From assembly GCA_017551845.1 (NCBI GenBank), contig JAFZKR010000139.1, forward strand, positions 1 through 21,880: DNA of 21,880 bases, given 5' to 3'. Below are positions 2,333 through 21,880 of this stretch, in pieces. Position 1 is the first letter of the stretch; every line of letters begins with the position of its first letter. The notes beneath the pieces are model-generated. The model ran no database searches, was not told the origin of the DNA, and saw only the letters and a program-made list of their open reading frames with translations. The stretch comes from Bacteroidaceae bacterium (GTDB taxonomy: Bacteria; Bacteroidota; Bacteroidia; Bacteroidales; Bacteroidaceae). The translations under genes and the position numbers were made by a program.

Positions 2333-3169
2333 TTACTCTGTTACGGTTCCTTCAAAAACAAATTCAGCGGCACCGGTCATTAGAACCTCCTTGGTATCAG
2401 GATTCCATTTGACATTAAGCGTACCGCCGTCCATAATCACATCACAACCATCGGCATCAGTATATCCCTGCATGGCCGATGCAACCGCCGTTGCGCATGC
2501 TCCTGTGCCACATGCAAATGTTATGCCGCTGCCACGCTCCCAGACACGCATGCGTATATGTTTGCGGTCCAGAACCTGTGCAAACTCAATGTTGGCACGG
2601 TCCGGGAACATCTGGTGATGTTCCATAAAAGGGCCTACTTCATCTACACGAGCCTTCTCGGCATCGTTTATGAACATTACAAGATGAGGGTTACCCATAT
2701 CTATGGCAGAGCATACGGTGGGACCTTCACCCACATTGAGTTTCTCACCGACCAGCGTTCCTTTACCATAATTAACCATTAGAGGAACACCAGGTCCCAT
2801 ATTGACTGATACAGTCTCAACCTTTCCGTCAACGCCCAGATTCAGTTTCAATATCTTTATACCTGACAGTGTATCCAACTTTATTTCAGTCTTGGATGTG
2901 AGTCCTTTCTCATACAGATATTTACCCACGCAGCGGGCTCCGTTTCCGCACATACGGGCCTCAGAGCCGTCAGCATTGAATATCCTCATACTGAAATCGG
3001 CAATGGCCGACTTACCAATCATGATAAGTCCGTCAGAGCCTATTCCTTTGCGGCGGTCACTCCAACGGATGGAGAACTGCTTGGGATCGGTTATGGGGTA
3101 CTCCATGGTATTGACGTATATGTAGTCATTACCAAGACCCTGCATCTTTGTAAAACGAATCACACTCAT
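2333..3169 (-). CDS. dapF: Diaminopimelate epimerase
   Basis: DapF interconverts LL- and meso-diaminopimelate without a cofactor, supplying the peptidoglycan cross-link residue and lysine. The 278-residue protein shows both catalytic thiols in their signatures: Cys74 in [10 protein letters not shown] and Cys220 in TFACGTGA. The N-terminal [11 protein letters not shown] is also a family signature. Its ATG overlaps the gltD stop as ATGA, so translation is probably coupled to gltD; dapL follows after 5 bp. Length and motifs are normal. The order gltD-dapF-dapL ties lysine/cell-wall synthesis to the glutamate supply. Confidence 0.96.
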
Positions 3170-4512
3170 TTGCTCTGCAAATACTTATCAACTTGGGCAG
3201 CAACTTCGCGGCCACTGGCAAGTGCGCGGACCACAAGGCTCGCACCGTTCTTGGCATCACCTGCCAGGAACACGTTCTCAGCGTACTGAGGATGCTCAGG
3301 CTTGAGGAATCCCATAGCCAACAGCACCATATCGCACTCTATAATCTCCTTGTTACCGGTCAGTTTCATCTGCGGACGGCCGCCATTAGGATCCGGTACC
3401 CATTCCACCGTCTCCACCTCAACACCCTTGAGGTTACCCTTGCCGTCATCCAGGAACTTATTTGATGTAAGGCACCAGCGGCGCTCGCAACCCTCCTCAT
3501 GACTAGTTGTTGTCTTGAGGATATTAGGCCACTGCGGCCAAGGAGTTGCGGGATTGTAGCCTACAGGAGGCTTGGGCATGATCTCAATCTGGGTAACGCT
3601 AACGGCACACTGTCTGTGACATGTACCTATGCAGTCACTGCCGGTATCACCGCCACCTATTACCAGTACCTTCTTACCCTTAGCAGATACGGTCTCTTCG
3701 GGAGAAAACTCCTTGCCTGCCAGACGCAGATTCTGCTGTGTAAGCATCTGCAGAGCAAAATATACGCCCTTGAGCTCACGACCCGGAATCTTAAGATCAC
3801 GTGCAGTAGGCGTACCGTTCGATATTATATAAGCGTCAAAGCCCTCGGGCAGTTTGTTAAGATCAACCATAGTATTGAACTTGAACTTTATTCCCTCCTG
3901 CTCCATGATTGCCATACGGCGGTCAATCACATACTTGTCAAGTTTGAAGTTAGGTATTCCATAACGTACCAAACCGCCTGCTGACGGCATCTTGTCAAAC
4001 AGAGTCACATCATAACCCAAGCAGTTAAGTCTCACTGCAGCACTCAAGCCGGAAGGACCAGCACCTATAATGGCTACTTTCTTGCCGTTACGCTCATATG
4101 TCTGAGGCTTTATATATCCCTCACGGAATGCATGTTCAATAATTGAGCACTCGTTTTCACGGATAGTTACAGGAGCATCAATGCAAAGATTCAGAGCACA
4201 GCTCTTCTCGCAGAGAGCCGGGCAGATACGGCCCGTAAACTCCGGAAAATCATTGGTAGCGGAGAGCAGCTTGTATGCCAGCTCCCATTTACCTTTATAT
4301 ACGGCATCCTGCCATTCAGGCTGCTTGTTGCCCAGCGGGCAAGCCCAATGGCAGAACGGTACGCCGCAATCCATACAGCGTGAAGCCTGCATCTGACGGC
4401 TGCTGTCGTTCAAAGTCTGCTCTACCTCACTGAAATCAGCTATTCTCTCATGTATTGGTCTATGACCGGCATCCTGTCTGGGTACGGTCAGAAATGCTCT
4501 TGGATTTCCCAT
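3166..4512 (-). CDS. gltD: Glutamate synthase small subunit (NADPH-dependent)
   Basis: GltD oxidises NAD(P)H with FAD and passes electrons through [4Fe-4S] clusters to GltB for reductive synthesis of glutamate from glutamine and 2-oxoglutarate. The 448-residue protein begins with a ferredoxin-like domain: cysteines in [16 protein letters not shown] and in [17 protein letters not shown] are the cluster ligands. Two Rossmann signatures follow, [10 protein letters not shown] for FAD and GGGDTGSDC for NADPH. A C-terminal [16 protein letters not shown] closes the FAD site. It starts 21 bp after the gltB stop and overlaps dapF by 4 bp. Length is close to the bacterial norm. Confidence 0.97.
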
Positions 4513-4533: not shown

Positions 4534-7500
4534 TCAATAATCACGCTGCACATTGTCAATCTTCTGCTGCAACGCCTTCATCCTCTCCTCCTGCAGTATG
4601 CGACGATATTCGATAGGAGTAACCTGTATGAACTCACCTACGTACTGGTTCCAGTTGTCAAGCATCTTCTTGGCAAGAGCTGATCCGGTATATTTGTAGT
4701 GCTTCTCTATCAGACTGTGCAACTCGTCACGACCGGCCTTGTCCTCAATCAAGTCAAGCTCAATCATATCCATGTTGCAGTAGTAGTCAAAGTCATGGTT
4801 CTTGTCCCAAACATAAGCCAAACCACCTGACATACCGGCGGCAAAGTTCCTTCCGGTTGTTCCGAGCACAACCACACGGCCGCCTGTCATATACTCGCAG
4901 CAGTGGTCTCCTGCGCCCTCAACGACTGCTATGGCACCAGAGTTACGTACGCCAAAGCGCTCACCCACACGGCCGTTGATGAATATCTCACCGCTTGTAG
5001 CACCATACAGTATGGTGTTGCCTGCTATGATGTTGTCCGACGGCTCATAAGTAGTCTCCTTGGGCGGGCAGATAGCTATGCGGCCACCTGAGAGGCCCTT
5101 TCCTACATAGTCATTGGATTCACCCTCCAGACGGAACGTAACACCCTTCATAAGGAACGCACCGAAACTCTGTCCTGCAGAACCTTTGAACTTAACGTCA
5201 ATGGTACCGTCGGCCAGACCGTCATGCCCATACTTGGATGCAATCTCACCGGAGAGCATAGCACCTACAGCGCGGTCAGTGTTGATAATATCGTAAGCAA
5301 GCTCAACCTTGCTGCCCTTATCAATTGCCTGTGCAGATTCCTTTATGATCTTCTGGTCAAGCACTTGGCTAAGATCATGCTGCTGATCCTCAACCTTACG
5401 CAGATCACCGTCAATCCTGGTTAGCATACGGCTGAAGTCAAGGCCCCTTGTCTTATCGTTGAACTTGGTTGTATCAATCTCAATAAGGTCCGTACGGCCT
5501 ATTATATCCTCAAAGCGGCGGAATCCCATCTCAGCCAGCAGTTCACGTACGCCCTGAGCCATATACATATAGTAGTTTATAAGGTACTGGCTGTGACCTC
5601 GGAACTTGGCGCGCAATGCTGGATCCTGCGTAGCAACGCCTACAGGGCAAGCGTTAGTATGACACTTACGCATCAACAGGCAACCCAAAACGATAAGCTG
5701 AGCCGTGCCGAATCCGAACTCGCCAGCACCCAGCAGAGCCATTGAAATGACGTCTCGCGGAGTCTTAAGCTGGCCATCTACCTGAACCTCAATCTCCTTG
5801 CGCAGACCATTCAGAACCAGAGTCTGCTGAGTCTCAGAAAGACCTATTTCAGGTGAAATACCTGCATAACGTATTGATGATGCTGGTGAAGCACCTGTGC
5901 CGCCCTCAGAGCCCGATATAACCACCAGGTCAGCCTTGGCCTTGGCCACACCGGCTGCAATGGTACCTACACCGCTCTCGGCCACCAGCTTTACGCTGAT
6001 CTTGGCCTTGGGGTTGACATTACGCAAATCAAATATGAGCTGTGCCAGATCCTCGATAGAATAGATATCGTGATGTGGCGGAGGCGAAATCAGTGATATT
6101 CCGGGAATTGAGTTACGTGTACGGGCAATTATCTCGTTCACCTTGAATCCCGGCAGCTGACCGCCCTCACCGGGTTTTGCGCCCTGGGCAATCTTGATCT
6201 GAATCTCCATTGCATTGACCAGATACTCGGCAGTAACACCGAATCGGCCCGATGCAACCTGCTTGATACGGCTGCTAAGTGAAACACCGTCCACATCCTC
6301 ATGGAAGCGGGTGCTGTCCTCACCTCCCTCACCGGTATTGCTGCGTGAATCAAGAGTATTGAGTGCAATTGCAATAGCCTCATGAGCCTCCTTGCTTATG
6401 GCACCGAATGACATTGCGGCACCTATAAAACGCTTTACAATCTTCTCGGCCGGCTCAACCTCATCAATTGATATGGGGTTGGTCTTGAACTTGAAGTAGT
6501 TGCGCAGGAACAACGGTTCAGGACGGTCATCCACAATTGAGCAGAACTCCTTGAACTTCTTGTAACTGCCCAAGCGTGTTGCCAGTTGCAGTGTTGATAT
6601 GGCCTCAGGCGTCCATGCGTGACGTATTCCATCCTTACGGAAAGCATACTGGCCTATGAACGGGAGCACATCGGCGGGCTCGGCTTTGCTGAATCCCTGC
6701 TCCTGCATACGTACGGCATCCTTGCAGATACCCTCAAATCCTACTCCACCCACAGTCGATGAAGCTGTACCGAAGTACTTGGCAAGCACCTCCTGGCTGA
6801 TACCTATGGACTCGAATATCTTTGCACCGCGATATGAACGTATGGTGCTTATACCCATCTTGCTCAGAATCTTCTTAAGACCCTTGTCAACAGCCTTGAT
6901 GTAGTTGTGCTGAGCAGTCTCGTAATCAAGCTGAATCTCACCCTTCTTCACGAGGTCGTCAATCACTGCAAATGCCATATACGGGTTCACAGCACTTGCG
7001 CCGTAGCCCATAAGCAGAGCCACATGCATAACCTCACGTATCTCACCGCTCTCAACTATCAGGGCTGTCTGAACACGTTTCTGGATTGAAACCAGATAGT
7101 GGTGAATAGCACTCACTGCAAGCAGTGATGGTATCGCTGCATGAGTGTCATCTATACCGCGGTCGCTCAGGATTATGTAGTTGATACCTGCATCAACAGA
7201 CTCCTCGGCTTTCTTGCAGAGCTCATGGATGGCATCGGCCATACCTTTGGCACCCTTGGCCTTCTCAAAGAGAATGGGAAGTATTTCAGTATTGAATCCT
7301 TTGTAGCGAATGTTACAGAGTGTATCCAGCTCAGTGTTGGTGAGTACCGGCTGCGGCAGACGAACCATCTTGCAGTGGCCCTCACTGGGAGTAAGTATGT
7401 TCATGCCAACTGCACCTATATACTCAGTCAGTGACATGACAAGTTCTTCACGGATAGGATCTATAGGCGGATTTGTAACCTGTGCGAACTGCTGACGGAA

Positions 7501-9000
7501 GTAGTTGAACAGCAGCTGCGGACGATCTGACAGAACCGCCAGCTGGGTATCGTTACCCATTGATGAAAGCGGCTCCTGAGCCGTCTGGCACATGGGAACA
7601 ATCACACGGTCTATATCCTCACGAGTAAAGTCAAACGCCCTTAACCGACGTGTGAATTCACTTATGTCATTGGGGGCCTTACGGCCGCTCTTAAGCTTAC
7701 CCAATTCAACACGGCCGGCACTGAGCCACTCACCGTAGTTGTACTCGCTGGCCAGAGCATCCTTAACCTCATCGTTACGGAAAATCTGACCGTTATCGGT
7801 ATCAATAAGCAGAATCTTACCGGGCTGAAGTTTACCTTTCTCTATTATACCGGCAGCATCAACGTGAATGCAACCGGCCTCGGATGCCATAATGAGCATT
7901 CCGTCTTTTGTGATAAGGTAGCGAGCGGGACGCAGACCGTTACGGTCAAGCATACCTCCTGCGTAGCGGCCATCGGTAAAGAGCATTGCAGCAGGACCGT
8001 CCCAAGGCTCCATGAGTATGGAATGGTACTCATAGAATGCCTTGAGCTTGTCACTTATGGGGTTCTTCTCATTGAAAGACTCAGGGATCATCATGGCCAT
8101 AGCATGCGGCAGAGACATGCCGGAGCGCACAAAGAACTCCAGCACATTGTCAAATGATGCACTGTCGCTCATATCGGGCTGTACAATAGGATGTATATCC
8201 GATACATCACCAAGTGCCTCCGATGACAGCACGCTCTCACGTGCCTCCATCCAGCCGCGGTTGCCGCGAATGGTGTTGATTTCACCGTTGTGAGCCAGCA
8301 TTCGGAACGGCTGTGCCAGTGACCAAGTGGGGAATGTATTGGTACTGAAACGGGAATGCACCATAGCTATGCCGCTGGTAAAGAACGGACTGCTGAGGTC
8401 AGGATAGTACTCACGGAGTTGTGTAGATGTGAGCATTCCCTTATATACCATGATGCGGCTTGAAAGGGATACAATATAGAAATCACGGTTGTCAATGCGT
8501 TTCTCAACATGCTTGCGAATCTTGTAGAGAATGGCCTCCAGACCGTCAACCTGAGCCGCTCCGGTAATGAATATCTGTACGGTGCAGGGCTCAGTGGCCT
8601 TTGCTGCATCACCCAGGATATTGCTGTTTACGGGAACGTCGCGTGTGTTTGACAACTGAAGCCCCATCTTCTCTGTCTCCTCACTGATAATGTCAAGGTA
8701 CTGCTCACGCAATTCTTTGTCCTGCGGCAGGAACACCAGTCCTGTACCATAGTGCAGACGCTCAGGAACGGGAATACCCTGCAGAAGTATGAACTCGTGC
8801 GGTATCTGGACCATAATTCCAGCTCCGTCACCACTCTTGTTATCGGCAGCCTCGGCTCCACGGTGCTTCATATTCTCAAGCAGCGTCAAGGCCTCATCCA
8901 CAAGCAGGTGCGTCTTGTTTCCCTTCAGATTGACCATCATGCCTATTCCACATGCATCATGCTCGTTCTGAGGATCATATAATCCCTGTGTCTTAATCAT
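4534..9000 (-). CDS. gltB: Glutamate synthase large subunit
   Basis: GltB transfers the amide of glutamine to 2-oxoglutarate, giving two glutamates; with glutamine synthetase it forms the GS-GOGAT ammonium assimilation cycle. The 1488-residue protein has a short propeptide followed by Cys17 (HDACGIGM), the catalytic N-terminal cysteine of the class II glutaminase domain (about 17-420). A central domain, the FMN synthase domain (with GGTGASPASS) and the C-terminal beta-helical GXGXG domain (GLSGGRIAI, GAGDHCCEYMTGG) follow. The 3Fe-4S ligands are in CLLMRKCHTNACPVG, a Cx5Cx4C arrangement. The start is supported by the normal propeptide length. It follows the glutamine synthetase gene after 145 bp containing hairpins and precedes gltD by 21 bp. 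Confidence 0.98.
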   Translation of the reverse strand: MIKTQGLYDPQNEHDACGIGMMVNLKGNKTHLLVDEALTLLENMKHRGAEAADNKSGDGAGIMVQIPHEFILLQGIPVPERLHYGTGLVFLPQDKELREQYLDIISEETEKMGLQLSNTRDVPVNSNILGDAAKATEPCTVQIFITGAAQVDGLEAILYKIRKHVEKRIDNRDFYIVSLSSRIMVYKGMLTSTQLREYYPDLSSPFFTSGIAMVHSRFSTNTFPTWSLAQPFRMLAHNGEINTIRGNRGWMEARESVLSSEALGDVSDIHPIVQPDMSDSASFDNVLEFFVRSGMSLPHAMAMMIPESFNEKNPISDKLKAFYEYHSILMEPWDGPAAMLFTDGRYAGGMLDRNGLRPARYLITKDGMLIMASEAGCIHVDAAGIIEKGKLQPGKILLIDTDNGQIFRNDEVKDALASEYNYGEWLSAGRVELGKLKSGRKAPNDISEFTRRLRAFDFTREDIDRVIVPMCQTAQEPLSSMGNDTQLAVLSDRPQLLFNYFRQQFAQVTNPPIDPIREELVMSLTEYIGAVGMNILTPSEGHCKMVRLPQPVLTNTELDTLCNIRYKGFNTEILPILFEKAKGAKGMADAIHELCKKAEESVDAGINYIILSDRGIDDTHAAIPSLLAVSAIHHYLVSIQKRVQTALIVESGEIREVMHVALLMGYGASAVNPYMAFAVIDDLVKKGEIQLDYETAQHNYIKAVDKGLKKILSKMGISTIRSYRGAKIFESIGISQEVLAKYFGTASSTVGGVGFEGICKDAVRMQEQGFSKAEPADVLPFIGQYAFRKDGIRHAWTPEAISTLQLATRLGSYKKFKEFCSIVDDRPEPLFLRNYFKFKTNPISIDEVEPAEKIVKRFIGAAMSFGAISKEAHEAIAIALNTLDSRSNTGEGGEDSTRFHEDVDGVSLSSRIKQVASGRFGVTAEYLVNAMEIQIKIAQGAKPGEGGQLPGFKVNEIIARTRNSIPGISLISPPPHHDIYSIEDLAQLIFDLRNVNPKAKISVKLVAESGVGTIAAGVAKAKADLVVISGSEGGTGASPASSIRYAGISPEIGLSETQQTLVLNGLRKEIEVQVDGQLKTPRDVISMALLGAGEFGFGTAQLIVLGCLLMRKCHTNACPVGVATQDPALRAKFRGHSQYLINYYMYMAQGVRELLAEMGFRRFEDIIGRTDLIEIDTTKFNDKTRGLDFSRMLTRIDGDLRKVEDQQHDLSQVLDQKIIKESAQAIDKGSKVELAYDIINTDRAVGAMLSGEIASKYGHDGLADGTIDVKFKGSAGQSFGAFLMKGVTFRLEGESNDYVGKGLSGGRIAICPPKETTYEPSDNIIAGNTILYGATSGEIFINGRVGERFGVRNSGAIAVVEGAGDHCCEYMTGGRVVVLGTTGRNFAAGMSGGLAYVWDKNHDFDYYCNMDMIELDLIEDKAGRDELHSLIEKHYKYTGSALAKKMLDNWNQYVGEFIQVTPIEYRRILQEERMKALQQKIDNVQRDY

Positions 9001-9145: not shown

Positions 9146-11332
9146 TCAATTAATAAACAGCAACTCGCGATACTTCGGCAACGGCCACATATCGTTGTCA
9201 ACAATCTCCTCGAGTTTATCAATAGTCTTACGAAGCGGGAAAAGTGACTCTGCTATCTCATGATAGGCCTTAGCCTTCTCATACTCATCCTCAATCTTGT
9301 TGGCAGCCTTACGGGCCTCAACCATGCTGTCAACTTGACGGCGCAGGTCAGTCACCAGTTCTGATATGCTGGTTACAAGCCCCATGCTCACTCCGGCCAT
9401 TGCTGTGTAGTTATCTGTGAACACACCCTTCATAAGAGTGATGTTCTTGAGCAGTTTGGTCTGATATGCCAGAGCGGCGGGAATGATATGATTGATAGCC
9501 ATACGGCCTGTCACCCGGGCTTCAATCTGTACCTTTTTGGTATATGTTTCCCACTTCACCTCATTGCGTGCCTCAAGTTCCTTCTCGGTGTAAACGCCCA
9601 GCTCAGTGAACATCTTGATAGCCTTGGGAGCGGTAAATGCCTTGAACATCTCAGGCACGTTGGTGCTGGTGTCCAGACCACGACGCTTGGCCTCAGCCTT
9701 CCACTCATCGGTATAACCGTTACCGTCAAAGCAAACCACATCAATAATGCTTTTGATGATAGGTTTCAAGGTATCCATGAATGCTATGTTCATTGGCTTT
9801 CCGGCCTTCATCTCCTTGTCAACACCCTTCTTGAACTCAATGAGCTGTTCTGCAACAGCTGCATTCAGAGTGGTCATTGCACCAGCGCAGTTTGCACTTG
9901 AACCTACGGCACGGAATTCAAAGCGGTTACCTGTGAACGCGAACGGCGATGTACGGTTACGGTCAGTGTTGTCAACAAATATCTCAGGTATCTCAACCAG
10001 ACCTACTGACTTTCCCTTCTTGCCGGCAATCTCAATAGGAGTATCAGACGGAACCTCAAGCAGTTTCTTGAGCACCGAAGTCATAGTCCGACCCAGGAAA
10101 GCCGATACTATTGCGGGAGGTGCCTCATTAGCACCAAGACGGTGAGCATTAGTAGCGGTTGCTATTGAAGCCTTGAGCAGATCATTATGCCTCTGTACGG
10201 CAGCCAGCACGTTTACAAAGAATGTAACGAACTGCAGATTACCCATAGCATCCTTACCTGGAGCGAGCAACAGAGTTCCTGTATCAGTACCGAGTGACCA
10301 GTTATTGTGCTTACCGGAACCGTTGATGCCGTCAAACGGCTTCTCGTGGAACAGAACCACAAATCCGTGCTTACGGGCAATCGTGTTCATCACGTTCATC
10401 ATCTGCTGGTTCTGATCATTTGAAAGATTGGTTTCACCATATATGGGAGCAAGCTCGAACTGGTTGGGAGCAACCTCGTTGTGACGTGTCTTAAGCGGAA
10501 TACCCAGTTTGTAACCGGCTATCTCAATGTCGCGCATGAAAGCGGCCACGCGTGACGGTATTGCACCAAAATAATGGTCATCCAGCTGCTGGTTCTTTGA
10601 TGATGCGTGTCCCATCAATGTACGGCCTGTAAGCATAAGGTCAGGACGTGCAGCATAGAGATCCTCATCAACCAAGAAGTACTCCTGCTCCCAGCCCAGA
10701 TATGAATAAACCTTCTTGACCTTGGAATCAAACATCTTGCAGATAGGCAGAGCGGCATCATTTACAGCCTTCAGAGCCTTCTTAAGCGGAGTCTTGTAGT
10801 CAAGAGCCTCACCGGTATATGATATGAATACGGTAGGTATGCAGAGAGTGTCATCCTGTATGAACACAGGCGATGTAGGATCCCATGCCGTATAGCCGCG
10901 GGCCTCGAAAGTGGCACGGATACCACCGCTCGGGAATGATGATGCGTCAGGCTCCTGCTGTGCCAGAGCTTTGCCGTCGAAAGTCTCAATCATACCGCCC
11001 TTGCCATCGTACTCCATGAATGAGTCGTGCTTTTCGGCAGTACCGTCAGTTAGCGGCTGGAACCAGTGTGTGATATGTGTCACACCATGCTCCATAGCCC
11101 AAACCTTCATACCTGCGGCAACTCCGTCAGCAGTTTTGCGGTCCAGATGCTCACCGTTATCAATACAATTGACCAGTGCTTTGTAGGTCTCGGCATCAAG
11201 ATACTTGCGCATCTTGTCCCTGTTGAACACCAATTCCCCGAAATAATCGGAAATCTTCTTGTCTGGTGTCTCTACTACAGCCGCCTTCTTCTTGAAAGCA
11301 TCCTGTATTACATCAAATCTTAGTTCACTCAT
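9146..11332 (-). CDS. glnN: Glutamine synthetase, type III (GSIII)
   Basis: This ATP-dependent ligase makes glutamine from glutamate and ammonium. The 728-residue length identifies GSIII (GlnN; called glnA in Bacteroides fragilis), a family of about 700-730 residues, unlike the roughly 450-residue GSI. Visible GSIII landmarks are an N-terminal extension with ISDYFGELVFN, EVAPNQFELAP (about 280-290) and NGSGKHNNWSLGTDTG (about 334-349), equivalent to the glutamate/ATP-site HxNxS region of other GS classes. GNRFEFRAVGSSANCA (about 465-480) resembles the ATP-site Arg motif. No adenylylation-type Tyr motif of GSI is obvious. It starts 32 bp after the asnB stop and is followed by gltB after a hairpin-rich gap, so it probably shares the asnB transcript. 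Confidence 0.95.
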   Translation of the reverse strand: MSELRFDVIQDAFKKKAAVVETPDKKISDYFGELVFNRDKMRKYLDAETYKALVNCIDNGEHLDRKTADGVAAGMKVWAMEHGVTHITHWFQPLTDGTAEKHDSFMEYDGKGGMIETFDGKALAQQEPDASSFPSGGIRATFEARGYTAWDPTSPVFIQDDTLCIPTVFISYTGEALDYKTPLKKALKAVNDAALPICKMFDSKVKKVYSYLGWEQEYFLVDEDLYAARPDLMLTGRTLMGHASSKNQQLDDHYFGAIPSRVAAFMRDIEIAGYKLGIPLKTRHNEVAPNQFELAPIYGETNLSNDQNQQMMNVMNTIARKHGFVVLFHEKPFDGINGSGKHNNWSLGTDTGTLLLAPGKDAMGNLQFVTFFVNVLAAVQRHNDLLKASIATATNAHRLGANEAPPAIVSAFLGRTMTSVLKKLLEVPSDTPIEIAGKKGKSVGLVEIPEIFVDNTDRNRTSPFAFTGNRFEFRAVGSSANCAGAMTTLNAAVAEQLIEFKKGVDKEMKAGKPMNIAFMDTLKPIIKSIIDVVCFDGNGYTDEWKAEAKRRGLDTSTNVPEMFKAFTAPKAIKMFTELGVYTEKELEARNEVKWETYTKKVQIEARVTGRMAINHIIPAALAYQTKLLKNITLMKGVFTDNYTAMAGVSMGLVTSISELVTDLRRQVDSMVEARKAANKIEDEYEKAKAYHEIAESLFPLRKTIDKLEEIVDNDMWPLPKYRELLFIN

Positions 11333-11364: not shown

Positions 11365-13041
11365 TTAATAAGCTTTTTCATGAACACCCTTCACAGCGCG
11401 GCCGCTGGGGTCATTAATGTTCCGGAATGATTTGTCCCATGCAAGCGCTTCGGCTGTAGAGCAGGCCACACTAGGTACGCTGGGTACCGTACGCGCTGCG
11501 CTCTCGCTCGGAAACAGCTCCTCATATATGGAACGGTAGTAATACTCCTCCTTGTTCATAGGCGGATTGACAGGGAAACGCTCAGCGGCATGAGTCATCT
11601 GCTCATCGGATACAGCATTTGCAGTGAAAGCCTTCAGCGAGTCTATCCAACTGTAACCCACCCCATCACTGAACTGCTCTTTCTGACGCCATACTATCTC
11701 ACGCGGAAGCATATCTTCAAATGCCTGGCGTACTACCTTCTTCTCTATCTCATTGCCACGACACATCTTGCATTCAGGATCAAGGCTCATAGCCACATCC
11801 AGGAATACGGTGTCAAGGAAAGGTACACGACCCTCAATACCCCACGCTGCCAACGATTTGTTAGCTCTGAGGCAGTCATACTGGTACAGACGAGAAAGCT
11901 TGCGTACGGTCTCTTCATGGAAAGCCTTAGCATCAGGTGCCTTGTGGAAATACAGGTAACCTCCGAACACCTCATCGGCTCCCTCACCACTCAAAACCAT
12001 CTTTATACCCATGCTACGTATCACACGGGCCAGCAGATACATGGGGGTGCTTGCACGTACGGTAGTAACATCGTATGTCTCAATGTGATAAATCACGTCA
12101 CGTATAGCGTCTATTCCTTCCTGAACGGTGTAGTTCACTTCATGATGAACTGTGCCCAGATGCTCAGCCACCAGTCTGGCCTTCTCCAGATCCGGAGCTC
12201 CCTTCAGTCCCACTGCGAACGAATGAAGACGTGGCCACCAAGCATCATGCCTACCCTCTGTCTCTATTCGTTTGGCGGAATATTTCCGTGCTATAGCCGA
12301 TATAACAGAACTGTCCAGTCCGCCTGATAGCAATACTCCGTAAGGCACATCGCTCATCATCTGACGGCGCACGGCAGCCTCAAGGCTCTCACGCAACAGC
12401 TTAGGCGCATCGGCAGCCTTAGGACCATCCTTCACTGCATCATAATCCTTCCATGGACGCTTGTACCATCTCTCCATGCGCCCCTCACTACCCAACAGAT
12501 AATGTCCGGGAGGGAACACCTCATAACGCTCACAATAGCCCTCCAGAGCTTTCAGCTCACTGGCCACATAAAGCGTACCGTCATTGTCATATCCTATATA
12601 AAGAGGTATAACACCTATTGCGTCACGTGCAATCAGGAAATCCCCGCTCTCCTCATCAAACAGGGCAAACGCAAATATGCCGTCCAGCTCATCAAGAAAA
12701 TCCTTGCCTTTCTCACGATACAGCGCCAGTATCACCTCACAGTCAGAACCTGTCCGGAAACTGTAGCTGTCCTGCATGCGCTCCCTGAATGAGCGATGGT
12801 TGTAAATCTCACCATTTACTGCCAGAACCTGATTGCGGTCGGGTGAATATAGCGGCTGACCTCCGGAAAGCGGATCCACAATGGCCAGACGTTCATGTGC
12901 CAGCACACAACGGCTGCTGCTGTACACACCGCTCCAGTCCGGCCCGCGATGCCTTATGGTCGTTGCCATCTTAAGCGCCTTTTCACGCATTGCAGCCGAT
13001 TTGCCGTCGGGTATCCTGAAAATTCCCACAAAACCACACAT
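11365..13041 (-). CDS. asnB: Asparagine synthetase B (glutamine-hydrolysing)
   Basis: AsnB makes asparagine from aspartate, glutamine and ATP. The 558-residue protein starts MCGFVGIF, so removal of Met exposes the class II glutaminase nucleophile Cys2. RLAIVD (51-56) and NGEIYN (76-81) line the glutamine pocket. The synthetase domain carries the pyrophosphatase-type loop SGGLDSS (239-245) and later GEGADEVFGGY. Length matches E. coli AsnB (554). The start is fixed by the need for Cys at position 2. It is the first enzyme gene of the nitrogen run, lying 40 bp downstream of a hairpin and about 100 bp downstream of an Asn-rich leader ORF, which suggests control by asparagine-tRNA charging. Confidence 0.97.
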   Translation of the reverse strand: MCGFVGIFRIPDGKSAAMREKALKMATTIRHRGPDWSGVYSSSRCVLAHERLAIVDPLSGGQPLYSPDRNQVLAVNGEIYNHRSFRERMQDSYSFRTGSDCEVILALYREKGKDFLDELDGIFAFALFDEESGDFLIARDAIGVIPLYIGYDNDGTLYVASELKALEGYCERYEVFPPGHYLLGSEGRMERWYKRPWKDYDAVKDGPKAADAPKLLRESLEAAVRRQMMSDVPYGVLLSGGLDSSVISAIARKYSAKRIETEGRHDAWWPRLHSFAVGLKGAPDLEKARLVAEHLGTVHHEVNYTVQEGIDAIRDVIYHIETYDVTTVRASTPMYLLARVIRSMGIKMVLSGEGADEVFGGYLYFHKAPDAKAFHEETVRKLSRLYQYDCLRANKSLAAWGIEGRVPFLDTVFLDVAMSLDPECKMCRGNEIEKKVVRQAFEDMLPREIVWRQKEQFSDGVGYSWIDSLKAFTANAVSDEQMTHAAERFPVNPPMNKEEYYYRSIYEELFPSESAARTVPSVPSVACSTAEALAWDKSFRNINDPSGRAVKGVHEKAY

Positions 13042-13070: not shown

Positions 13071-13109
13071 ACCAAAAGAAGAAGGCTGGTCCTATCTGAA
13101 CCAGCCTTC
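13071..13109 (-). terminator. Attenuator hairpin upstream of asnB
   Basis: On the minus strand, a perfect 10-bp stem GAAGGCTGGT / ACCAGCCTTC with a 9-nt loop is followed by TTCTTTTGGT, a short imperfect U-tract. It ends 40 nt before the asnB ATG, so it sits between promoter and gene and not at an operon end. That position means a regulated (conditional) terminator rather than a constitutive one. The GGCTGGT/ACCAGCC core is shared with the hairpin upstream of the P-II gene. Confidence 0.8.
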
Positions 13110-13143: not shown

Positions 13144-13269
13144 TCAACATGTCCGACTGGTGAAACAACAAGGGGAACCGGGAATCTGATTATTATTCTG
13201 ATTCCAGTTATTATTCTGCTTATCATTCATCTGATTAGACAGACAGTTATATGTAATATTGATCTCCAT
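13144..13269 (-). CDS. Asparagine-rich leader peptide of the asnB operon (41 aa)
   Basis: An ATG about 20 nt downstream of a TAACTTTG promoter box opens a 41-codon frame. It holds 11 Asn (positions 4, 8, 12, 15, 19-21, 23, 25-27) and 4 Gln codons and ends in TGA 34 nt before the asnB attenuator hairpin. The dense stretch is QNNNWNQNNNQIPG (18-31). Nine of the 11 Asn codons are AAT. Bases 13155-13161, within codons 37-39 (ACC AGT C), can pair with the hairpin's 5' arm GGCTGGT (7 bp including one G-U). Ribosomes stalled at the Asn run would leave this segment free and favour antitermination; ribosomes reaching the stop would cover it and permit termination. The peptide itself has no recognisable domain and is read as a sensor of charged Asn-tRNA. 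Translation and regulation are inferred, not shown. Confidence 0.8.
   Translation of the reverse strand: MEINITYNCLSNQMNDKQNNNWNQNNNQIPGSPCCFTSRTC
13155..13161 (-). promoter_or_regulatory. Predicted antiterminator strand in the asnB leader
   Basis: The minus-strand segment ACCAGTC repeats most of the 3' arm of the downstream hairpin (ACCAGCC). It can therefore compete for the 5' arm GGCTGGT, forming A-U, C-G, C-G, A-U, G-C, U-G and C-G pairs. It lies 3-5 codons before the leader stop, where a terminating ribosome would mask it. Confidence 0.6.
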
Positions 13270-13287
13270 ATATCTTTATTGACGATG

Positions 13288-13318
13288 CAAAGTTAAGCAC
13301 ATAATTTCAAACTGCAAT
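13288..13318 (-). promoter_or_regulatory. Bacteroidales promoter for the asnB leader/operon
   Basis: The minus strand carries TAACTTTG (13288-13295), an exact match to the TAnnTTTG -7 box used by the primary sigma factor of Bacteroides. An ATTG lies 19 nt upstream as a partial -33 element. Transcription would start about 5-8 nt downstream, giving a leader ORF close to the RNA 5' end. Confidence 0.7.
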
Positions 13319-13933: not shown

Positions 13934-14623
13934 TCAGAACGAGAAGCCCAAAACAAAGTAGGCCATCTCGGCACAGGGGTTGAGAGTTATTCCCGCCGAT
14001 ATGGGCAAACTGAAACTCTCCGTAATGTCAATTGATTTTTCAGCAGCAAGCGATACGTTGGTTACCGCAAAGCCATCGGTTCCATAAAGGGGTGTCTCCA
14101 TTGGAACAAATCCCAGAGTTGCAGTCCAATCTGCACCAAACGCACTGAATGGTGCCGCCAGTTCGCAGCATGAGCTGTACGCCCGGTCGCCATCGGCTTT
14201 GAAATCATTGCCGGCAAAGTTTGTGTACCAGCTTATTGACGCAAAGCCGAAATCATACCCAAGGAATGCCTCAAATATATGGTTGGTTGCATTCTCACCA
14301 TATTTAAAATAACGCCCGTAAGGCTCACTGCCCACGCTGAACCAATAGTCTGTCATACCGACACTTGCCCCACCTGCTGAATAACTCAGAGTGAGATCAA
14401 GCTCTTTGGTATCAAGGTGATTTACTATGCCTATGCTCCCCCAGGCCGAAATCTCAAATCCGCCCGCACTGACAGCCAATGTGGGTTGCAGCGCTGCATC
14501 GCCGCATTTTACCCCTCTGAATATATATTCACTTACTACATCAGCACCTACTGTTGTTTTTATCTCTGCGTGTAATGGAACTAATATTGCGGCCATTACA
14601 ACTAATACAAATACTTTCTTCAT
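13934..14623 (-). CDS. TorF/Gcw_chp-like outer-membrane beta-barrel linked to amtB
   Basis: The 229-residue protein has a signal peptide (about 1-19, ending LVPLHA). The mature protein opens with GADVVSEYIFRGV (27-38), then LQPTLAVSAGGFEISAWGS and KELDLTLSY. The S-x-Y-x-F-R-G motif followed by a 'P-x-G-x-F-x-W-x-S ... ELDL' pattern is that of the Gcw_chp/TorF family of putative porins. Alternating hydrophobic strands and a C-terminal aromatic (VLGFSF) support an outer-membrane barrel. It lies 177 bp downstream of amtB on the same strand, so it may move ammonium or small nitrogen compounds across the outer membrane for AmtB. That role is inferred from position; transport has not been shown. 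The Cys-Cys pair in SSCCEL is unusual for a barrel. Confidence 0.75.
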   Translation of the reverse strand: MKKVFVLVVMAAILVPLHAEIKTTVGADVVSEYIFRGVKCGDAALQPTLAVSAGGFEISAWGSIGIVNHLDTKELDLTLSYSAGGASVGMTDYWFSVGSEPYGRYFKYGENATNHIFEAFLGYDFGFASISWYTNFAGNDFKADGDRAYSSCCELAAPFSAFGADWTATLGFVPMETPLYGTDGFAVTNVSLAAEKSIDITESFSLPISAGITLNPCAEMAYFVLGFSF

Positions 14624-14800: not shown

Positions 14801-16048
14801 TTAAATGTTATAGGCAGTCTCTCCGTGTTCGTAAATATCCAGGCCTTCCTCCTCTACTCTGGGCTCAACGCGGATTCCGTGAACCTTTTTGAGGATAACG
14901 AATGTGAGCATGCCAAGGCAGAATGACCAAGCGACTGTTACCAGTGATCCAAGAGCCTCAACGCCCAGGAAGTGCCAGCCTCCACCATAGAACAAGCCAC
15001 CGTCCACAGCAAACATACCTGTCATGAGAGTACCCAGAATACCGCAAACTCCGTGTACTGATACAGCACCTACAGGATCATCAATCTTGCAAATTTTATC
15101 AATAAGGGCAACAGAACCTACCATTGCGACACCACAAACAGTACCTATAATTGCAGAACCGCCTATTGATACAAGGTCGCAACCTGCCGTGATACCTACC
15201 AGACCAGCCAGAATACCGTTGCAAACCAATGAAAGTGAAGGTTTGCCGTAAACAATCCATGTAAGGAACAGCACTGAAAGTCCGCCTGTTGCAGCAGCCA
15301 TGTTGGTTGTGCACATTACGTGTGAAATTGCAATTGCATTCTCGGCACCCTCGGCAGCCAGCTGTGAACCGGGGTTGAAACCGAACCAACCGAACCAGAG
15401 GATAAACACGCCCAGAGCACCGAATGTCAGGTTATGACCGGGGATAGCGCGGGATTCGCCCGTCTTTGAATATTTTCCGATACGTGGACCAAGCACCATA
15501 GCACCGGCAAGTGCAATCACGCCGCCACAGGTGTGAACAACTGTTGAACCTGCAAAATCATGAAAACCAAGCTCGCTCAACCAACCGCCGCCCCATGTCC
15601 AGTGACCTTCAATGGGGTAAATAAGGACTGAAATAATGATTGAAATGATCACGTACATTGAAAACTTGGTTCTCTCGGCCATACCGCCCGATACTATTGT
15701 AGCGGCTGTGGCGCAGAATACGGTTTGAAATATCAGAGTGCATTCGGCAGGAACGTTTGAGTCACCTATGAATGACCAGTCAAAAAGGTGAAGGCCACCT
15801 ATGAATCCGTTGTTTGTTCCATGCATAAGACCGAAACCTATCATCCAGAACAGGAACGAGCCCACCATGAAGTCAACAAAGTTCTTCATCAGAATATTTG
15901 CAGTATTCTTGGAACGGGTAAAGCCCGCCTCAACCAGCGCGAAACCGGGCTGCATAAAGAACACCAGCATAGCTGCTATCAACACCCAGACTGTATCCAG
16001 TCCGCTTATACCACTCTCTGATATTGTCGATATAATTGAATCTTCCAT
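14801..16048 (-). CDS. amtB: Ammonium channel/transporter
   Basis: AmtB is a trimeric inner-membrane channel for ammonium/ammonia, gated by P-II. The 415-residue protein has about 11 hydrophobic segments. Family landmarks are MQPGFALVEAGFTRSKN (32-48), Asp164 in HDFAGSTVVH, the twin pore histidines His172 and His332 (SVHGVCG), the Phe-rich WFGWFGFNPGS (218-228) and DDPVGAVSVHG (323-333). The N-terminus has no long cleavable signal, unlike E. coli AmtB. A 25-residue charged cytoplasmic tail (VEPRVEEEGLD...) is normal. It begins 29 bp after the P-II stop, the usual glnK-amtB pairing in the usual order. Upstream, the shared transcript passes a Gln/Asn leader and attenuator. Confidence 0.97.
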   Translation of the reverse strand: MEDSIISTISESGISGLDTVWVLIAAMLVFFMQPGFALVEAGFTRSKNTANILMKNFVDFMVGSFLFWMIGFGLMHGTNNGFIGGLHLFDWSFIGDSNVPAECTLIFQTVFCATAATIVSGGMAERTKFSMYVIISIIISVLIYPIEGHWTWGGGWLSELGFHDFAGSTVVHTCGGVIALAGAMVLGPRIGKYSKTGESRAIPGHNLTFGALGVFILWFGWFGFNPGSQLAAEGAENAIAISHVMCTTNMAAATGGLSVLFLTWIVYGKPSLSLVCNGILAGLVGITAGCDLVSIGGSAIIGTVCGVAMVGSVALIDKICKIDDPVGAVSVHGVCGILGTLMTGMFAVDGGLFYGGGWHFLGVEALGSLVTVAWSFCLGMLTFVILKKVHGIRVEPRVEEEGLDIYEHGETAYNI

Positions 16049-16077: not shown

Positions 16078-16425
16078 TCATTTCTTGTCACGCAATACAG
16101 TATCACCGTGTTCTCCGGTACGGATTGACCATGTGTCATCCACAGGACTCACGAATATCCGGCCGTCACCCACCTGACCGGTACGGGCAGCACCCATAAT
16201 GGCATCAATGGCAGGCTGTACAAACTGATCACGGCAGATTATCGTTATCTCAATACGCGAGATGATATCTGTGCTGTACATCACACCACGATAGATACGG
16301 TCCTGACGGGCCTGACCTATGGCATGAACTTCAGCATACGAGAACCAGTTGATGTCGGCCTCAAAAAGAGCCTCTTTCACATCTTCAAACCGGGTTTTCC
16401 GGATGATTGCTTCAATCTTTTTCAT
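16078..16425 (-). CDS. glnB: P-II nitrogen regulatory protein
   Basis: This small trimeric signal protein senses ATP/ADP, 2-oxoglutarate and, through partners, nitrogen status. Next to amtB its likely job is to plug the ammonium channel (GlnK-type role). The 115-residue protein starts MKKIEAIIRKTRFEDVKEAL, has the T-loop tip YRGVMYSTDII with Tyr45 and Tyr50 (equivalents of E. coli Tyr46 and Tyr51), the B-loop RTGQVGDGRIFV (81-92) and the C-loop IRTGEHGD (101-108). By eye, the T-loop base IGQARQDRIYRG is one residue shorter than in E. coli and lacks a Gln exactly at the position of Gln39, the 2-oxoglutarate ligand. It is the first gene after the Gln/Asn-rich leader. Confidence 0.95.
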   Translation of the reverse strand: MKKIEAIIRKTRFEDVKEALFEADINWFSYAEVHAIGQARQDRIYRGVMYSTDIISRIEITIICRDQFVQPAIDAIMGAARTGQVGDGRIFVSPVDDTWSIRTGEHGDTVLRDKK

Positions 16426-16470: not shown

Positions 16471-16506
16471 AAACAAAAAAGGCCGGTCAAAAACTTGACC
16501 AGCCTT
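16471..16506 (-). terminator. Attenuator terminator upstream of P-II/amtB
   Basis: On the minus strand, a 12-bp stem AAGGCTGGTCAA / TTGACCGGCCTT (one U-G pair) with a 4-nt loop is followed by TTTTGTTT directly after the stem's closing TT. This is a textbook intrinsic terminator, and it ends about 46 nt before the P-II ATG, between promoter and gene. The plus-strand side also has a T8 run, so it may stop transcription in both directions. The GGCTGGT stem core is shared with the asnB hairpin. Confidence 0.9.
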
Positions 16507-16534
16507 ATTTTTTTTCTTATATCTAATACAACAG

Positions 16535-16654
16535 TTACATACCTGACCGGTCAAAAGGTATAACCATCGGAACCTGATTATTCTGGTTCTGATTCTGCTG
16601 CTGCTGATTATTATTCAGCTGAACAGTGGTTATATTTTTAAAACCGATAAACAT
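16535..16654 (-). CDS. Glutamine/asparagine-rich leader peptide of the P-II/amtB operon (39 aa)
   Basis: An ATG about 25 nt downstream of the expected transcription start opens a 39-codon frame with 8 Gln (12, 17-20, 22, 24, 27) and 8 Asn (7, 14-16, 21, 23, 25, 26). The core is QLNNNQQQQNQNQNNQVP (12-29). All Gln codons are CAG and seven of eight Asn codons are AAT. The frame could be extended upstream to 16720, but that start lies above the TACCTTTG promoter box and so is not expected in the RNA. Codons 34-37 (TTTGACCGGTC) can pair with the 5' arm of the terminator that begins 28 nt after the stop. This is the arrangement of a ribosome-stalling attenuation leader sensing Gln (and Asn) tRNA charging. 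Similarity to the asnB leader (NQNxNNQ[IV]P motif) suggests common origin or convergence. Confidence 0.8.
   Translation of the reverse strand: MFIGFKNITTVQLNNNQQQQNQNQNNQVPMVIPFDRSGM
16545..16554 (-). promoter_or_regulatory. Predicted antiterminator strand in the P-II leader
   Basis: The minus-strand segment TTGACCGGTC duplicates most of the terminator's 3' arm (TTGACCGGCC). It can therefore form 10 pairs with the 5' arm GGCTGGTCAA, two of them G-U. It lies at codons 34-37, just before the leader stop, so a ribosome finishing the peptide would hide it. It also contains the 8-bp palindrome GACCGGTC. Confidence 0.65.
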
Positions 16655-16685
16655 AAAAATGTTCTGTTGTTTCTGATTTCTGCGG

Positions 16686-16693
16686 CAAAGGTA
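16686..16693 (-). promoter_or_regulatory. Promoter -7 box for the P-II leader/operon
   Basis: TACCTTTG on the minus strand is an exact TAnnTTTG -7 element. No convincing TTTG sits at the usual -33 distance, so an activator may assist. The predicted start is near 16680, about 25 nt before the leader ATG. Confidence 0.6.
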
Positions 16694-16792: not shown

Positions 16793-16824
16793 TTTGCATC
16801 ATCTTGCCATAATTGTATAATTTG
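16793..16824 (+). promoter_or_regulatory. Promoter for the CotH-domain protein gene
   Basis: TTTG (16793-16796), a 19-nt spacer and TATAATTTG (16816-16824) resemble the Bacteroidales promoter, with one extra base in the -7 box (TA-N3-TTTG). The predicted start near 16830-16835 lies downstream of a TTG at 16813 that could otherwise be taken as the start codon. This promoter diverges from the P-II leader promoter about 100 bp away. Confidence 0.55.
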
Positions 16825-16872
16825 CAAAATATCAGTAATTTTACGTCCTGTCAAATGACAACTGACTTGGCT

Positions 16873-21220: not shown

Positions 21221-21880
21221 TCACTTTATCGCAGCAGCGATGAAGGCTTTGAAGAGAGGATGCGGATTCTCAGGCGTGCTCTTGTACTCGGGATGGAACT
21301 GTGAGCCGATGAAGAACGGATGCACGGACTGCGGAAGCTCCACAATCTCGGTCAGGCCCGTCTGCGGGTTGTGACCCGATGCTACCAGACCAGCCTTGCT
21401 GAACTCCTCAGCATACTTGGCGTTGAACTCGTAGCGGTGACGGTGACGCTCGGAGATATGTTTGGTTCCGTAAATCTTGCAGGCAAGCGTGTCCTTTGTG
21501 ATTTCGCAGTCGTAGGCCCCAAGACGCATGGTTCCTCCCTTCATGGTGGTTTTCTTCTGATCCTCCATCATGTCTATTACGGGGTGTTTGGTATCGGGAT
21601 TGACCTCGGTTGACTCTGCATCCTTAAAGCCCAAGACGTTACGGGCAAACTCCACTACGCACATCTGCATTCCCAGGCAGATTCCAAAGAACGGTATCTT
21701 GTTCTCGCGGGCGTATTTGATGGCCTCAACTTTGCCTTCCAGACCGCGAGAGCCGAATCCGGGAGCAACCAGGATGCCCTTCATGCCTTTCAGTTTATTG
21801 GCTACGTTGGCAGCGGTTATCTCCTCGCTGTTTACGGAGTGGATATGCACCTTGCAGTAGTTGGCGGCACCCGCGTGCAC
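21221..21880 (-). CDS. pyrG: CTP synthase, C-terminal glutaminase part (partial)
   Basis: CTP synthase aminates UTP to CTP using glutamine. The 219 visible codons cover the class I glutamine amidotransferase half. Landmarks are VAPGFGSRGLEGK, the nucleophile cysteine in FFGICLGMQMC, the MRLGAYDC and ERHRHRYEFN stretches that set PyrG apart from other amidotransferases, and the catalytic FHPEYKS near the end. The frame runs off the window edge (first codon GTG, read as Val in VHAGAANYCKVH), so the N-terminal synthetase domain lies beyond it. It is convergent with the CotH gene, with 7 bp between stops. Like CarA, AsnB and GltB in this window it consumes glutamine. Confidence 0.96.
   Translation of the reverse strand: MHAGAANYCKVHIHSVNSEEITAANVANKLKGMKGILVAPGFGSRGLEGKVEAIKYARENKIPFFGICLGMQMCVVEFARNVLGFKDAESTEVNPDTKHPVIDMMEDQKKTTMKGGTMRLGAYDCEITKDTLACKIYGTKHISERHRHRYEFNAKYAEEFSKAGLVASGHNPQTGLTEIVELPQSVHPFFIGSQFHPEYKSTPENPHPLFKAFIAAAIK

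What the first reader, a model, noticed from the sequence alone, without database searches (positions are those of the whole stretch)
16471..16693. Glutamine/asparagine-codon leader peptide and terminator in front of P-II-amtB
Seen: a TACCTTTG box, a 39-codon ORF with 8 Gln and 8 Asn codons concentrated in residues 12-27, and a 12-bp terminator with T-tract before the P-II gene. The ORF end (TTGACCGGTC) can form 10 pairs with the terminator 5' arm. Inference: expression of the ammonium channel and its P-II regulator is controlled by translation of Gln/Asn codons, a direct readout of charged tRNA-Gln, rather than, or besides, a two-component system such as NtrBC. That would be an unusual way to sense nitrogen.
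Basis: partly seen in the sequence, partly recalled or inferred. Interest (0 to 1): 0.95.

Follow-up and report, generated by a model that had tools for sequence, protein, structure and literature searches.

The report
Glutamine-codon switches for nitrogen genes
In a group of Bacteroidales known mainly from gut metagenomes, short upstream reading frames packed with glutamine and asparagine codons, each followed by a terminator-like hairpin, stand in front of genes that take up ammonium and make or spend glutamine, and they are predicted to switch these genes on when glutamine-charged tRNA runs short.

Summary
In detail: a 39-codon ORF (8 Gln, 8 Asn; 15 of residues 12-27 are Gln or Asn) lies behind a TAnnTTTG box and before a 12-bp hairpin with T-tract, upstream of P-II-amtB. 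It is not chance: 21 of the 22 genomes with a P-II hit in the nearest genus keep it, and other Bacteroidales genera keep the plan with different sequence. The window holds a second, overlooked copy (13269-13144) before asnB-GSIII-gltB-gltD-dapF-dapL-carA; relatives carry copies before GSIII, pyrG, glmS and purF. The window's asnB leader is closest to relatives' glmS leaders, so these cassettes have moved between operons. In two 390-kb stretches all four Gln/Asn ORFs with terminator precede such genes. An element near the ORF end complements the terminator's 5' arm and covaries with it between genera. GlnRS was found, and GatB not, in the 10 genomes searched, so charged tRNA-Gln should report free glutamine. 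Best reading: ribosome-mediated attenuators of a glutamine regulon; a known mechanism class with a sensed amino acid and target set I did not find described. Not shown: expression, Gln versus Asn, and how the antiterminator beats a terminator that wins in full-length folds.

The parts
16686..16693 (-). TACCTTTG, a match to the Bacteroidetes primary-sigma -7 box TAnnTTTG
   Evidence: read directly; consensus as quoted in passages of PMC7366714; such a box precedes the leader start in 23 of 24 P-II leaders of the window set
16535..16654 (-). leader ORF 1, 39 codons
   Evidence: ORF intact in 24 of 24 aligned P-II leaders
16574..16621 (-). control-codon run (residues 12-27; 15 of 16 are Gln or Asn)
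   Evidence: sequence; mostly conserved as Gln/Asn, with codon-length indels only
16570..16589 (-). hairpin GAACC..GGTTC at the end of the run (possible RNA-polymerase pause hairpin, inferred)
   Evidence: synonymous-codon test over 27 leaders, combined p 1e-4, 5 of 27 below 0.05 singly, this one 0.086
16628..16634 (-). region 1, 5' strand of the protector helix (TATAACC)
   Evidence: pairs with 16565-16559 in the MFE; 98.8% of cells paired in A1, no two-sided change
16559..16565 (-). region 2, 3' strand of the protector helix (GGTTATA)
   Evidence: as above
16545..16555 (-). antiterminator element TTTGACCGGTC near the ORF end
   Evidence: complements terminator 5' arm; covariation between genera
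16479..16506 (-). predicted intrinsic terminator hairpin, T-tract to about 16475
16078..16425 (-). P-II regulator (PF00543)
14801..16048 (-). ammonium transporter amtB (TIGR00836)
13934..14623 (-). Gcw_chp family protein (PF09694) behind amtB, presumably the same operon
   Evidence: 25.0 bits against a cut-off of 24
13288..13295 (-). TAACTTTG, TAnnTTTG box of the second leader
13144..13269 (-). leader ORF 2 (MEINITYNCLSNQMNDKQNNNWNQNNNQIPGSPCCFTSRTC)
   Evidence: 70-82% identical over 178-199 nt to five glmS leaders of relatives
13153..13161 (-). antiterminator element of leader 2 (ACCAGTCGG)
13081..13109 (-). predicted terminator hairpin of leader 2, T-rich tail
11365..13041 (-). asnB, glutamine-hydrolysing asparagine synthase (NF006949)
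9146..11332 (-). glutamine synthetase type III (PF12437, PF18318, PF00120)
4534..9000 (-). gltB, glutamate synthase large subunit (NF008730)
3166..4512 (-). gltD, glutamate synthase small subunit (TIGR01317)
2333..3169 (-). dapF (TIGR00652)
1131..2327 (-). LL-diaminopimelate aminotransferase (TIGR03542)
42..1121 (-). carA, glutamine-hydrolysing carbamoyl-phosphate synthase small subunit (TIGR01368)
21221..21880 (-). 3' part of a class-I glutamine amidotransferase gene, read as pyrG; its start lies outside the window
   Evidence: PF00117; identity as pyrG inferred from its likeness to the G263 pyrG end and from neighbouring loci

Best explanation
The Gln/Asn leader in front of P-II-amtB is predicted to be a ribosome-mediated transcription attenuator, one of a family of such leaders that stands in front of nitrogen-uptake and glutamine-using operons of these Bacteroidales. 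Shown by sequence: short ORF, Gln/Asn run, an element near the ORF end complementary to the terminator's 5' arm, and a terminator-like hairpin; repeated before P-II, asnB, GSIII, pyrG, glmS and purF. Inferred: when glutamine (and asparagine) is plentiful the ribosome runs to the stop codon, covers the antiterminator element, the terminator hairpin forms and transcription stops. When charged tRNA-Gln (and tRNA-Asn) is scarce the ribosome stalls inside the run, the element stays free, pairs with the terminator's 5' arm as soon as that is made, and RNA polymerase reads into the operon. The hairpin at the end of the run may pause RNA polymerase so that the ribosome keeps step. Because the genomes tested have GlnRS and no detected GatB, charged tRNA-Gln would be a direct report of free glutamine. 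P-II and amtB would thus be controlled together with glutamine synthesis and with glutamine-spending amidotransferases by separate cis copies of the same kind of leader.
For: (1) Conservation: leader in 21 of the 22 nearest-genus genomes with a P-II hit; the exception, G296, has a 67%-identical P-II. (2) Second leader in the window before asnB; a leader region before asnB in 19 of the 19 loci examined where asnB is not behind amtB (17 with intact ORF). In the other two (L250, L267) asnB follows amtB without a leader of its own; in L250's genome, G714, P-II carries the leader. (3) When P-II is internal to an operon the leader precedes an upstream gene: asnB-P-II 2 of 2, GSIII-gltB-gltD-P-II 2 of 2, GSIII in 5 of 5 loci of the gltBD-pyrG-purF-P-II type whose GSIII start was fetched. 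(4) Other heads: pyrG directly in 5 of 27 starts examined; glmS in 11 of 14 and purF in the one case met. (5) Specificity. (6) Cassettes have moved: the window's asnB leader is 70-82% identical over 178-199 nt to five relatives' glmS leaders, and the L404 purF leader 77-84% identical over 142-184 nt to three asnB leaders. (7) Of 81 leaders, 78 have a recognisable arm core; 77 of these have CCGGYC, CCAGYC or the shifted partner downstream of the run, and L125 has CTGGTC. Arms with C at position 4 go with CCGGYC 6:0, arms with T with CCAGYC 15:3, Fisher p = 6e-4 on <80%-similar representatives (motif classes chosen). (8) Synonymous-codon test of the ORF tail: combined p 2e-4 over 27 leaders, 7 of 27 below 0.05 singly, the window's 0.013. 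(9) Stall map of leader 1: with the ribosome at any codon of the run, 11 bases of the arm pair with the leader once transcribed; from codon 33 none do apart from one position. (10) GlnRS 10 of 10, GatB 0 of 10 genomes. (11) In Prevotella ruminicola the homologous genes are reported as strongly ammonium-responsive (PMC5552732, passages and section 7).
Against: No expression data. In full-length folds the terminator is present for every ribosome position in all six leaders mapped, so antitermination must be kinetic. For the untranslated leader 1 the antiterminator, not protector plus terminator, is the minimum once only the 5' arm is made, so termination without translation is not assured. Within the P-II set the helices show little two-sided covariation: protector 0 pairs; antiterminator 2 pairs, no more than shuffles. 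Element-arm pairing against shuffled regions: only 5 of 26 representatives below 0.05 singly (combined p 8e-6), and partners swapped between lineages often pair as well because the motif is shared. In the first register 29 of 78 leaders lack a full 6-bp match; 24 of them pair in a shifted register, 5 do not. Two of 19 asnB leaders are frame-broken and 3 of 14 glmS loci have lost the ORF; assembly error is not excluded. In 6 of the 11 intact glmS leaders the T-tract after the hairpin is weak. A TAnnTTTG box is found before only 15 of 27 P-II leaders of other genera and 2 of 8 GSIII leaders. Codon positions vary about equally in the ORF alignments, so coding rests on frame, start and Q/N conservation rather than on third-position bias.
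Confidence: 0.78

Rival explanations
1. The leader is a translated attenuator, but the sensed signal is asparagine, or either amino acid, rather than glutamine specifically.
For: Almost all leaders carry both; Asn is the commonest residue overall (22.9% against 17.1% Gln over 81 leaders); asnB heads several of the operons; three leaders have only 2 Gln and 5 Asn, and L310 has 2 Gln and 8 Asn.
Against: L203 (before GSIII) has 8 Gln and no Asn in the start chosen; the other heads (GSIII, pyrG, glmS, purF) concern glutamine, not asparagine.
Confidence: 0.15
2. The Q/N peptide is a functional small protein or a nascent-chain sensor (as with TnaC, recalled), and the downstream hairpin is an ordinary or protein-controlled attenuator.
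For: The peptide is conserved within the P-II set.
Against: Between genera mainly Q/N composition is kept: order, length and flanking residues change freely, unlike an arrest peptide; an element complementary to the terminator arm lies in or near the ORF end in most leaders.
Confidence: 0.07
3. The region is a metabolite-binding RNA (glutamine riboswitch or T-box) and the ORF is incidental.
For: Strong fold; conserved helices within the P-II set.
Against: No Rfam family at gathering score in the window; in the two leaders only matches below threshold, the best L20_leader at 28.4 bits, E 0.001, gathering score 58.7; Q/N residues kept across genera while the sequence diverges.
Confidence: 0.04
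4. Chance: a repeat-rich stretch of CAG and AAT codons next to an ordinary terminator.
For: Low-complexity run.
Against: Scan specificity and conservation.
Confidence: 0.01

Closest known systems
Ribosome-mediated transcription attenuators of amino-acid operons (trp, his, ilv, thr type; general knowledge, recalled)
   Same: Leader ORF with control codons, alternative antiterminator and terminator that share the terminator's 5' arm, intrinsic terminator before the first gene.
   Different: Control codons are Gln/Asn; targets are P-II-amtB, glutamine synthetase/glutamate synthase and several glutamine amidotransferase genes in separate operons; the antiterminator loses to the terminator in full-length folds.
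Leader-peptide attenuation noted in Flavobacterium psychrophilum and suggested in Bacteroides thetaiotaomicron (PMC9723704 and PMC7366714, passages read)
   Same: Same phylum; clues for leader-peptide attenuation upstream of amino-acid biosynthesis operons (F. psychrophilum), and short ORFs in long 5' UTRs reminiscent of leader peptides (B. thetaiotaomicron).
   Different: The passages I read name no glutamine, asparagine, P-II or ammonium-transporter leader; their supplements were not read.
Glutamine riboswitches (glnA and downstream-peptide RNAs; recalled)
   Same: Cis RNA control of nitrogen genes by glutamine.
   Different: Those bind glutamine directly; no Rfam match at gathering score here; here the signal would be tRNA charging read by the ribosome.
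NtrBC/GlnB, GlnR/TnrA, NtcA, AmtR nitrogen control (recalled)
   Same: Same target genes: glutamine synthetase, glutamate synthase, P-II, amtB.
   Different: Those use DNA-binding proteins; here cis leaders. Presence or absence of such proteins was not tested.

Membership tests
Ribosome-mediated transcription attenuator | Short leader ORF with a run of control codons | tested here: met
Ribosome-mediated transcription attenuator | Control amino acid is a product or substrate of the operon controlled | tested here: met
   asnB, GSIII, gltBD, carA, pyrG, glmS, purF by family models behind leaders; for P-II-amtB the link is through ammonium, inferred
Ribosome-mediated transcription attenuator | Intrinsic terminator between ORF and first gene | tested here: met
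   predicted in 81 of 81 leaders tabulated; T-tract weak in 6 of 11 glmS leaders
Ribosome-mediated transcription attenuator | Antiterminator that uses the terminator's 5' arm, supported by covariation | tested here: met
   between genera; within the P-II set not above shuffles
Ribosome-mediated transcription attenuator | Ribosome at the control codons leaves the antiterminator free; ribosome at the stop masks it | tested here: met
   fold with a 15-nt footprint for six leaders: holds for the window P-II, window asnB, L001 and pyrG leaders; irregular in L131; not in L200, whose element lies past the stop
Ribosome-mediated transcription attenuator | Protector helix that enforces termination without translation | tested here: inconclusive
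   helix conserved in the P-II set, but the untranslated fold to the 5' arm favours the antiterminator in 6 of 11 leaders folded
Ribosome-mediated transcription attenuator | Antiterminator able to compete with the terminator | tested here: inconclusive
   terminator always in the full-length MFE; kinetic competition not modelled
Ribosome-mediated transcription attenuator | Readthrough increases when the control amino acid is scarce | not testable with these tools
   needs an experiment
Glutamine riboswitch or T-box | Match to the Rfam covariance model | tested here: not met
   0 families at gathering score in the whole window
NtrC/sigma-54 type control | Activator site and sigma-54 promoter upstream | not tested
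   a primary-sigma -7 box is present; no search for NtrC or sigma-54 was made

The most novel reading that the evidence does not exclude
These bacteria run a whole glutamine regulon without a dedicated transcription factor: each operon that imports ammonium, makes glutamine or spends glutamine carries its own copy of a movable Gln/Asn-codon attenuator, so the translating ribosome itself is the nitrogen sensor and even P-II and AmtB, elsewhere the sensors, are outputs of tRNA-Gln charging.
Probability: 0.5. Interest if true: 0.92.

Novelty: new variant of a known kind. Interest (0 to 1): 0.83.

Why it matters
Nitrogen control in bacteria is taught as protein-based (NtrBC, GlnR, NtcA, AmtR; recalled), and how Bacteroidota sense nitrogen is, to my knowledge, poorly known. 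A tRNA-charging readout set in front of P-II-amtB and of several glutamine-handling operons would make the question 'what is the nitrogen signal in gut and rumen Bacteroidales' directly testable with codon-swap reporters. It would also add Gln and Asn to the amino acids read by attenuators, and show a multi-operon regulon built from repeated cis elements that move between operons.

Tried and rejected
Riboswitch or T-box reading: no Rfam family at gathering score; with the permissive threshold the best match in leader 1 is L20_leader at 28.4 bits (E 0.001) against a gathering score of 58.7, and leader 2 has two matches below 16 bits. Wide distribution: not found before GSIII in 29 of the 30 named loci read (30 loci returned, 42 of 43 genomes with a hit; the one, L310, is a Salinivirgaceae record), nor in 28 of the 30 GSIII loci read out of 232 genomes with a hit in the order (the two are L340, the same gene as L310, and L341), nor before P-II in L005-L017. 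Of 158 distinct P-II upstreams, 37 have >=6 Q/N in 14 codons, one of them (L076) an unrelated ORF some 400 nt away. Plasmid copies: best plasmid P-II 62% identical; not pursued. P-II in viral contigs: three distant hits, not pursued. Within-set covariation as proof of the antiterminator was dropped: not above shuffles. The terminator string given was off by one column for most rows; slid by -1 it gives 97.5% of cells paired and 15 cells changed on both sides. The swap and shuffle duplex test gave mixed single-locus results. In print: ten searches of open-licence PMC papers, of which 34 and 63 were about nitrogen genes rather than leaders, showed no Gln or Asn leader of this kind; subscription papers and preprints were not searched. 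An earlier count said 15 glmS loci; searches give 14.

Full report
WHAT IS THERE. On the minus strand, within 270 bases before P-II, lie TACCTTTG (16693-16686), an ORF of 39 codons (16654-16535), a hairpin of 12 pairs (16506-16479) and a T-tract. The ORF reads MFIGFKNITTVQLNNNQQQQNQNQNNQVPMVIPFDRSGM; 15 of residues 12-27 are Gln or Asn. P-II (PF00543) and an ammonium transporter (TIGR00836) follow.

A SECOND COPY IN THE WINDOW. A scan of both strands (>=7 Q/N in 14 codons) found one other short ORF of this kind in the window: 13269-13144, MEINITYNCLSNQMNDKQNNNWNQNNNQIPGSPCCFTSRTC, again behind a TAnnTTTG box and before a hairpin with a T-rich tail. It precedes asnB, glutamine synthetase III, gltB, gltD, dapF, LL-DAP aminotransferase and carA on the same strand.

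CONSERVATION OF THE P-II LEADER. The window's own genome is not held. The genus of G304, which holds the P-II genes nearest to it (up to 100% identical), has 37 genomes in the collection; 22 have a P-II hit and 21 of them carry the leader. The exception, G296, has a P-II only 67% identical. With the window and two members of a sister genus this makes alignment A1 of 24 leaders, all with intact start, frame, run and terminator; indels in the ORF are whole codons. In that sister genus 6 of 19 genomes have P-II and only those 2 have the leader. In a large third genus (that of L003; 84 of 400 sampled genomes with P-II) leaders with little DNA similarity keep a Q/N run and a terminator; I read 26 with the leader directly before P-II and 9 with it before a longer operon that ends in P-II. 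The rest were not all read upstream, and some show none.

THE LEADER FOLLOWS THE GLUTAMINE OPERONS. In that third genus the leader stands before asnB in 2 of 2 asnB-P-II loci, before GSIII in 2 of 2 GSIII-gltB-gltD-P-II loci, and before GSIII in 5 of 5 fetched loci of the gltBD-pyrG-purF-P-II type. In the window and its nearest genus 19 of 19 asnB genes that are not behind amtB have the leader region, 17 with an intact ORF, L265 and L254 broken. pyrG has it directly in 5 of 27 starts examined, one gene being counted twice among the 22 without it. Of 16 stretches fetched upstream of other pyrG genes, 14 contain a glmS start: 11 of these have a Q/N ORF and the hairpin (T-tract weak in 6), and 3 (L400, L405, L413) keep the hairpin without a Q/N ORF. 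One (L404) has the leader before purF, and one (L414) shows none.

CASSETTES MOVE. The window's asnB leader matches five relatives' glmS leaders at 70-82% over 178-199 nt, but relatives' asnB leaders only over 33-62 nt; the L404 purF leader matches three asnB leaders at 77-84% over 142-184 nt; asnB and window P-II leaders match at 71-75% over 145-152 nt (a hand-picked set of 19 leaders). The leaders of different operons are thus related by descent, and have been exchanged or duplicated between operons.

SPECIFICITY. In 390.5 kb of G263 contig 5 the only Q/N ORFs with terminator precede P-II, asnB and pyrG; in 390.5 kb of G324 contig 1 the only one precedes GSIII. Requiring a downstream ORF and adding the window gives 6 hits, all of this kind, while 15 other residue classes, with cut-offs set by hand, give 0 or 1 each.

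STRUCTURE. Over 81 leaders a terminator and its 5' arm can be tabulated; 78 have an arm core of the form GRCYGG. Of these, all 36 with GGCTGG have CCGGYC or CCAGYC downstream of the run, all 12 with GACCGG have CCGGYC, the 27 with GACTGG have CCAGYC (3) or a shifted partner (24), and of 3 with GGCCGG 2 have CCGGYC. These motif classes were chosen, where 29 of 78 lacked a full match in the first register. Arm position 4 and the element covary between genera (Fisher p = 6e-4 on the representatives with less than 80% similarity, 2.6e-4 on all). Synonymous randomisation of the ORF tail weakens pairing (combined p 2e-4; 7 of 27 singly below 0.05) and likewise the hairpin at the end of the run (1e-4; 5 of 27). 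In leader 1, with the ribosome anywhere in the run, 11 bases of the new 5' arm pair with the leader; from codon 33 none do except at one position. But once the 3' arm is made the terminator is in the minimum at every position of the six leaders mapped. Antitermination must therefore be kinetic, and the default without translation is uncertain. Within the P-II set two-sided changes are too few to prove the protector or antiterminator helix.

SIGNAL. GlnRS scores above cut-off in 10 of 10 genomes (4 of 14 control genomes do) and GatB is found in 0 of 10 (12 of 14 control genomes are positive). Gln-tRNA is thus expected to be made directly from free glutamine. Leader codons are CAG 462, CAA 12, AAT 504, AAC 129 over 81 leaders, whereas five window genes use AAC 88, AAT 48. 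One leader (L203) has Gln and no Asn, so Gln is the likelier common signal, but both are present nearly everywhere.

LITERATURE. Prevotella ruminicola has the homologous genes in two clusters, and glnK, amtB, asnB, glnN and gltBD respond strongly to ammonium; its results text says induced under limiting ammonium, while a legend and other passages say non-limiting (PMC5552732; passages and section 7). The Prevotella-type P-II loci read here lack the leader, so that genus presumably does it otherwise. Leader-peptide attenuation is mentioned for Flavobacterium psychrophilum and suggested for Bacteroides thetaiotaomicron (passages). I found no paper on a Gln or Asn leader of this kind in ten searches.

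VERDICT. A real, conserved family of Gln/Asn-codon leaders with terminators, most likely ribosome-mediated attenuators of a glutamine regulon that includes P-II-amtB. The class is known; the sensed amino acids and target set appear to be new.

Noticed in passing
13269-13144 (-): Second Gln/Asn leader in the window, before asnB-GSIII-gltB-gltD-dapF-dapL-carA; not in the finding given. Its closest relatives are glmS leaders, not asnB leaders, of the nearest genus.
   Followed up: yes
L400, L405, L413, upstream of glmS: Three related glmS genes keep the leader's hairpin but have lost the Q/N ORF; whether glmS is then permanently attenuated is unknown.
   Followed up: partly
81 tabulated leaders: Leader Asn codons are mostly AAT (504:129) although five window genes prefer AAC (88:48).
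   Followed up: no
13934-14623 (-): A Gcw_chp (PF09694) protein follows amtB; P. ruminicola has a presumptive transmembrane protein gene (PRU_1977) clustered with amtB with similar ammonium response (PMC5552732), perhaps a partner in ammonium uptake. Homology of the two was not tested.
   Followed up: partly
16813-21213 (+): A 1466-aa CotH kinase/lamin-tail/beta-helix protein gene sits opposite, between P-II and the pyrG 3' end; in G263 pyrG and P-II are neighbours.
   Followed up: no
L184-L190, L200-L204: Operons of the type GSIII-gltB-gltD-pyrG-purF-P-II join glutamine synthesis with two glutamine amidotransferase genes and P-II.
   Followed up: partly
3169-1131 (-): dapF and LL-DAP aminotransferase lie inside the nitrogen operon, linking lysine/peptidoglycan precursors to it.
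   Followed up: no
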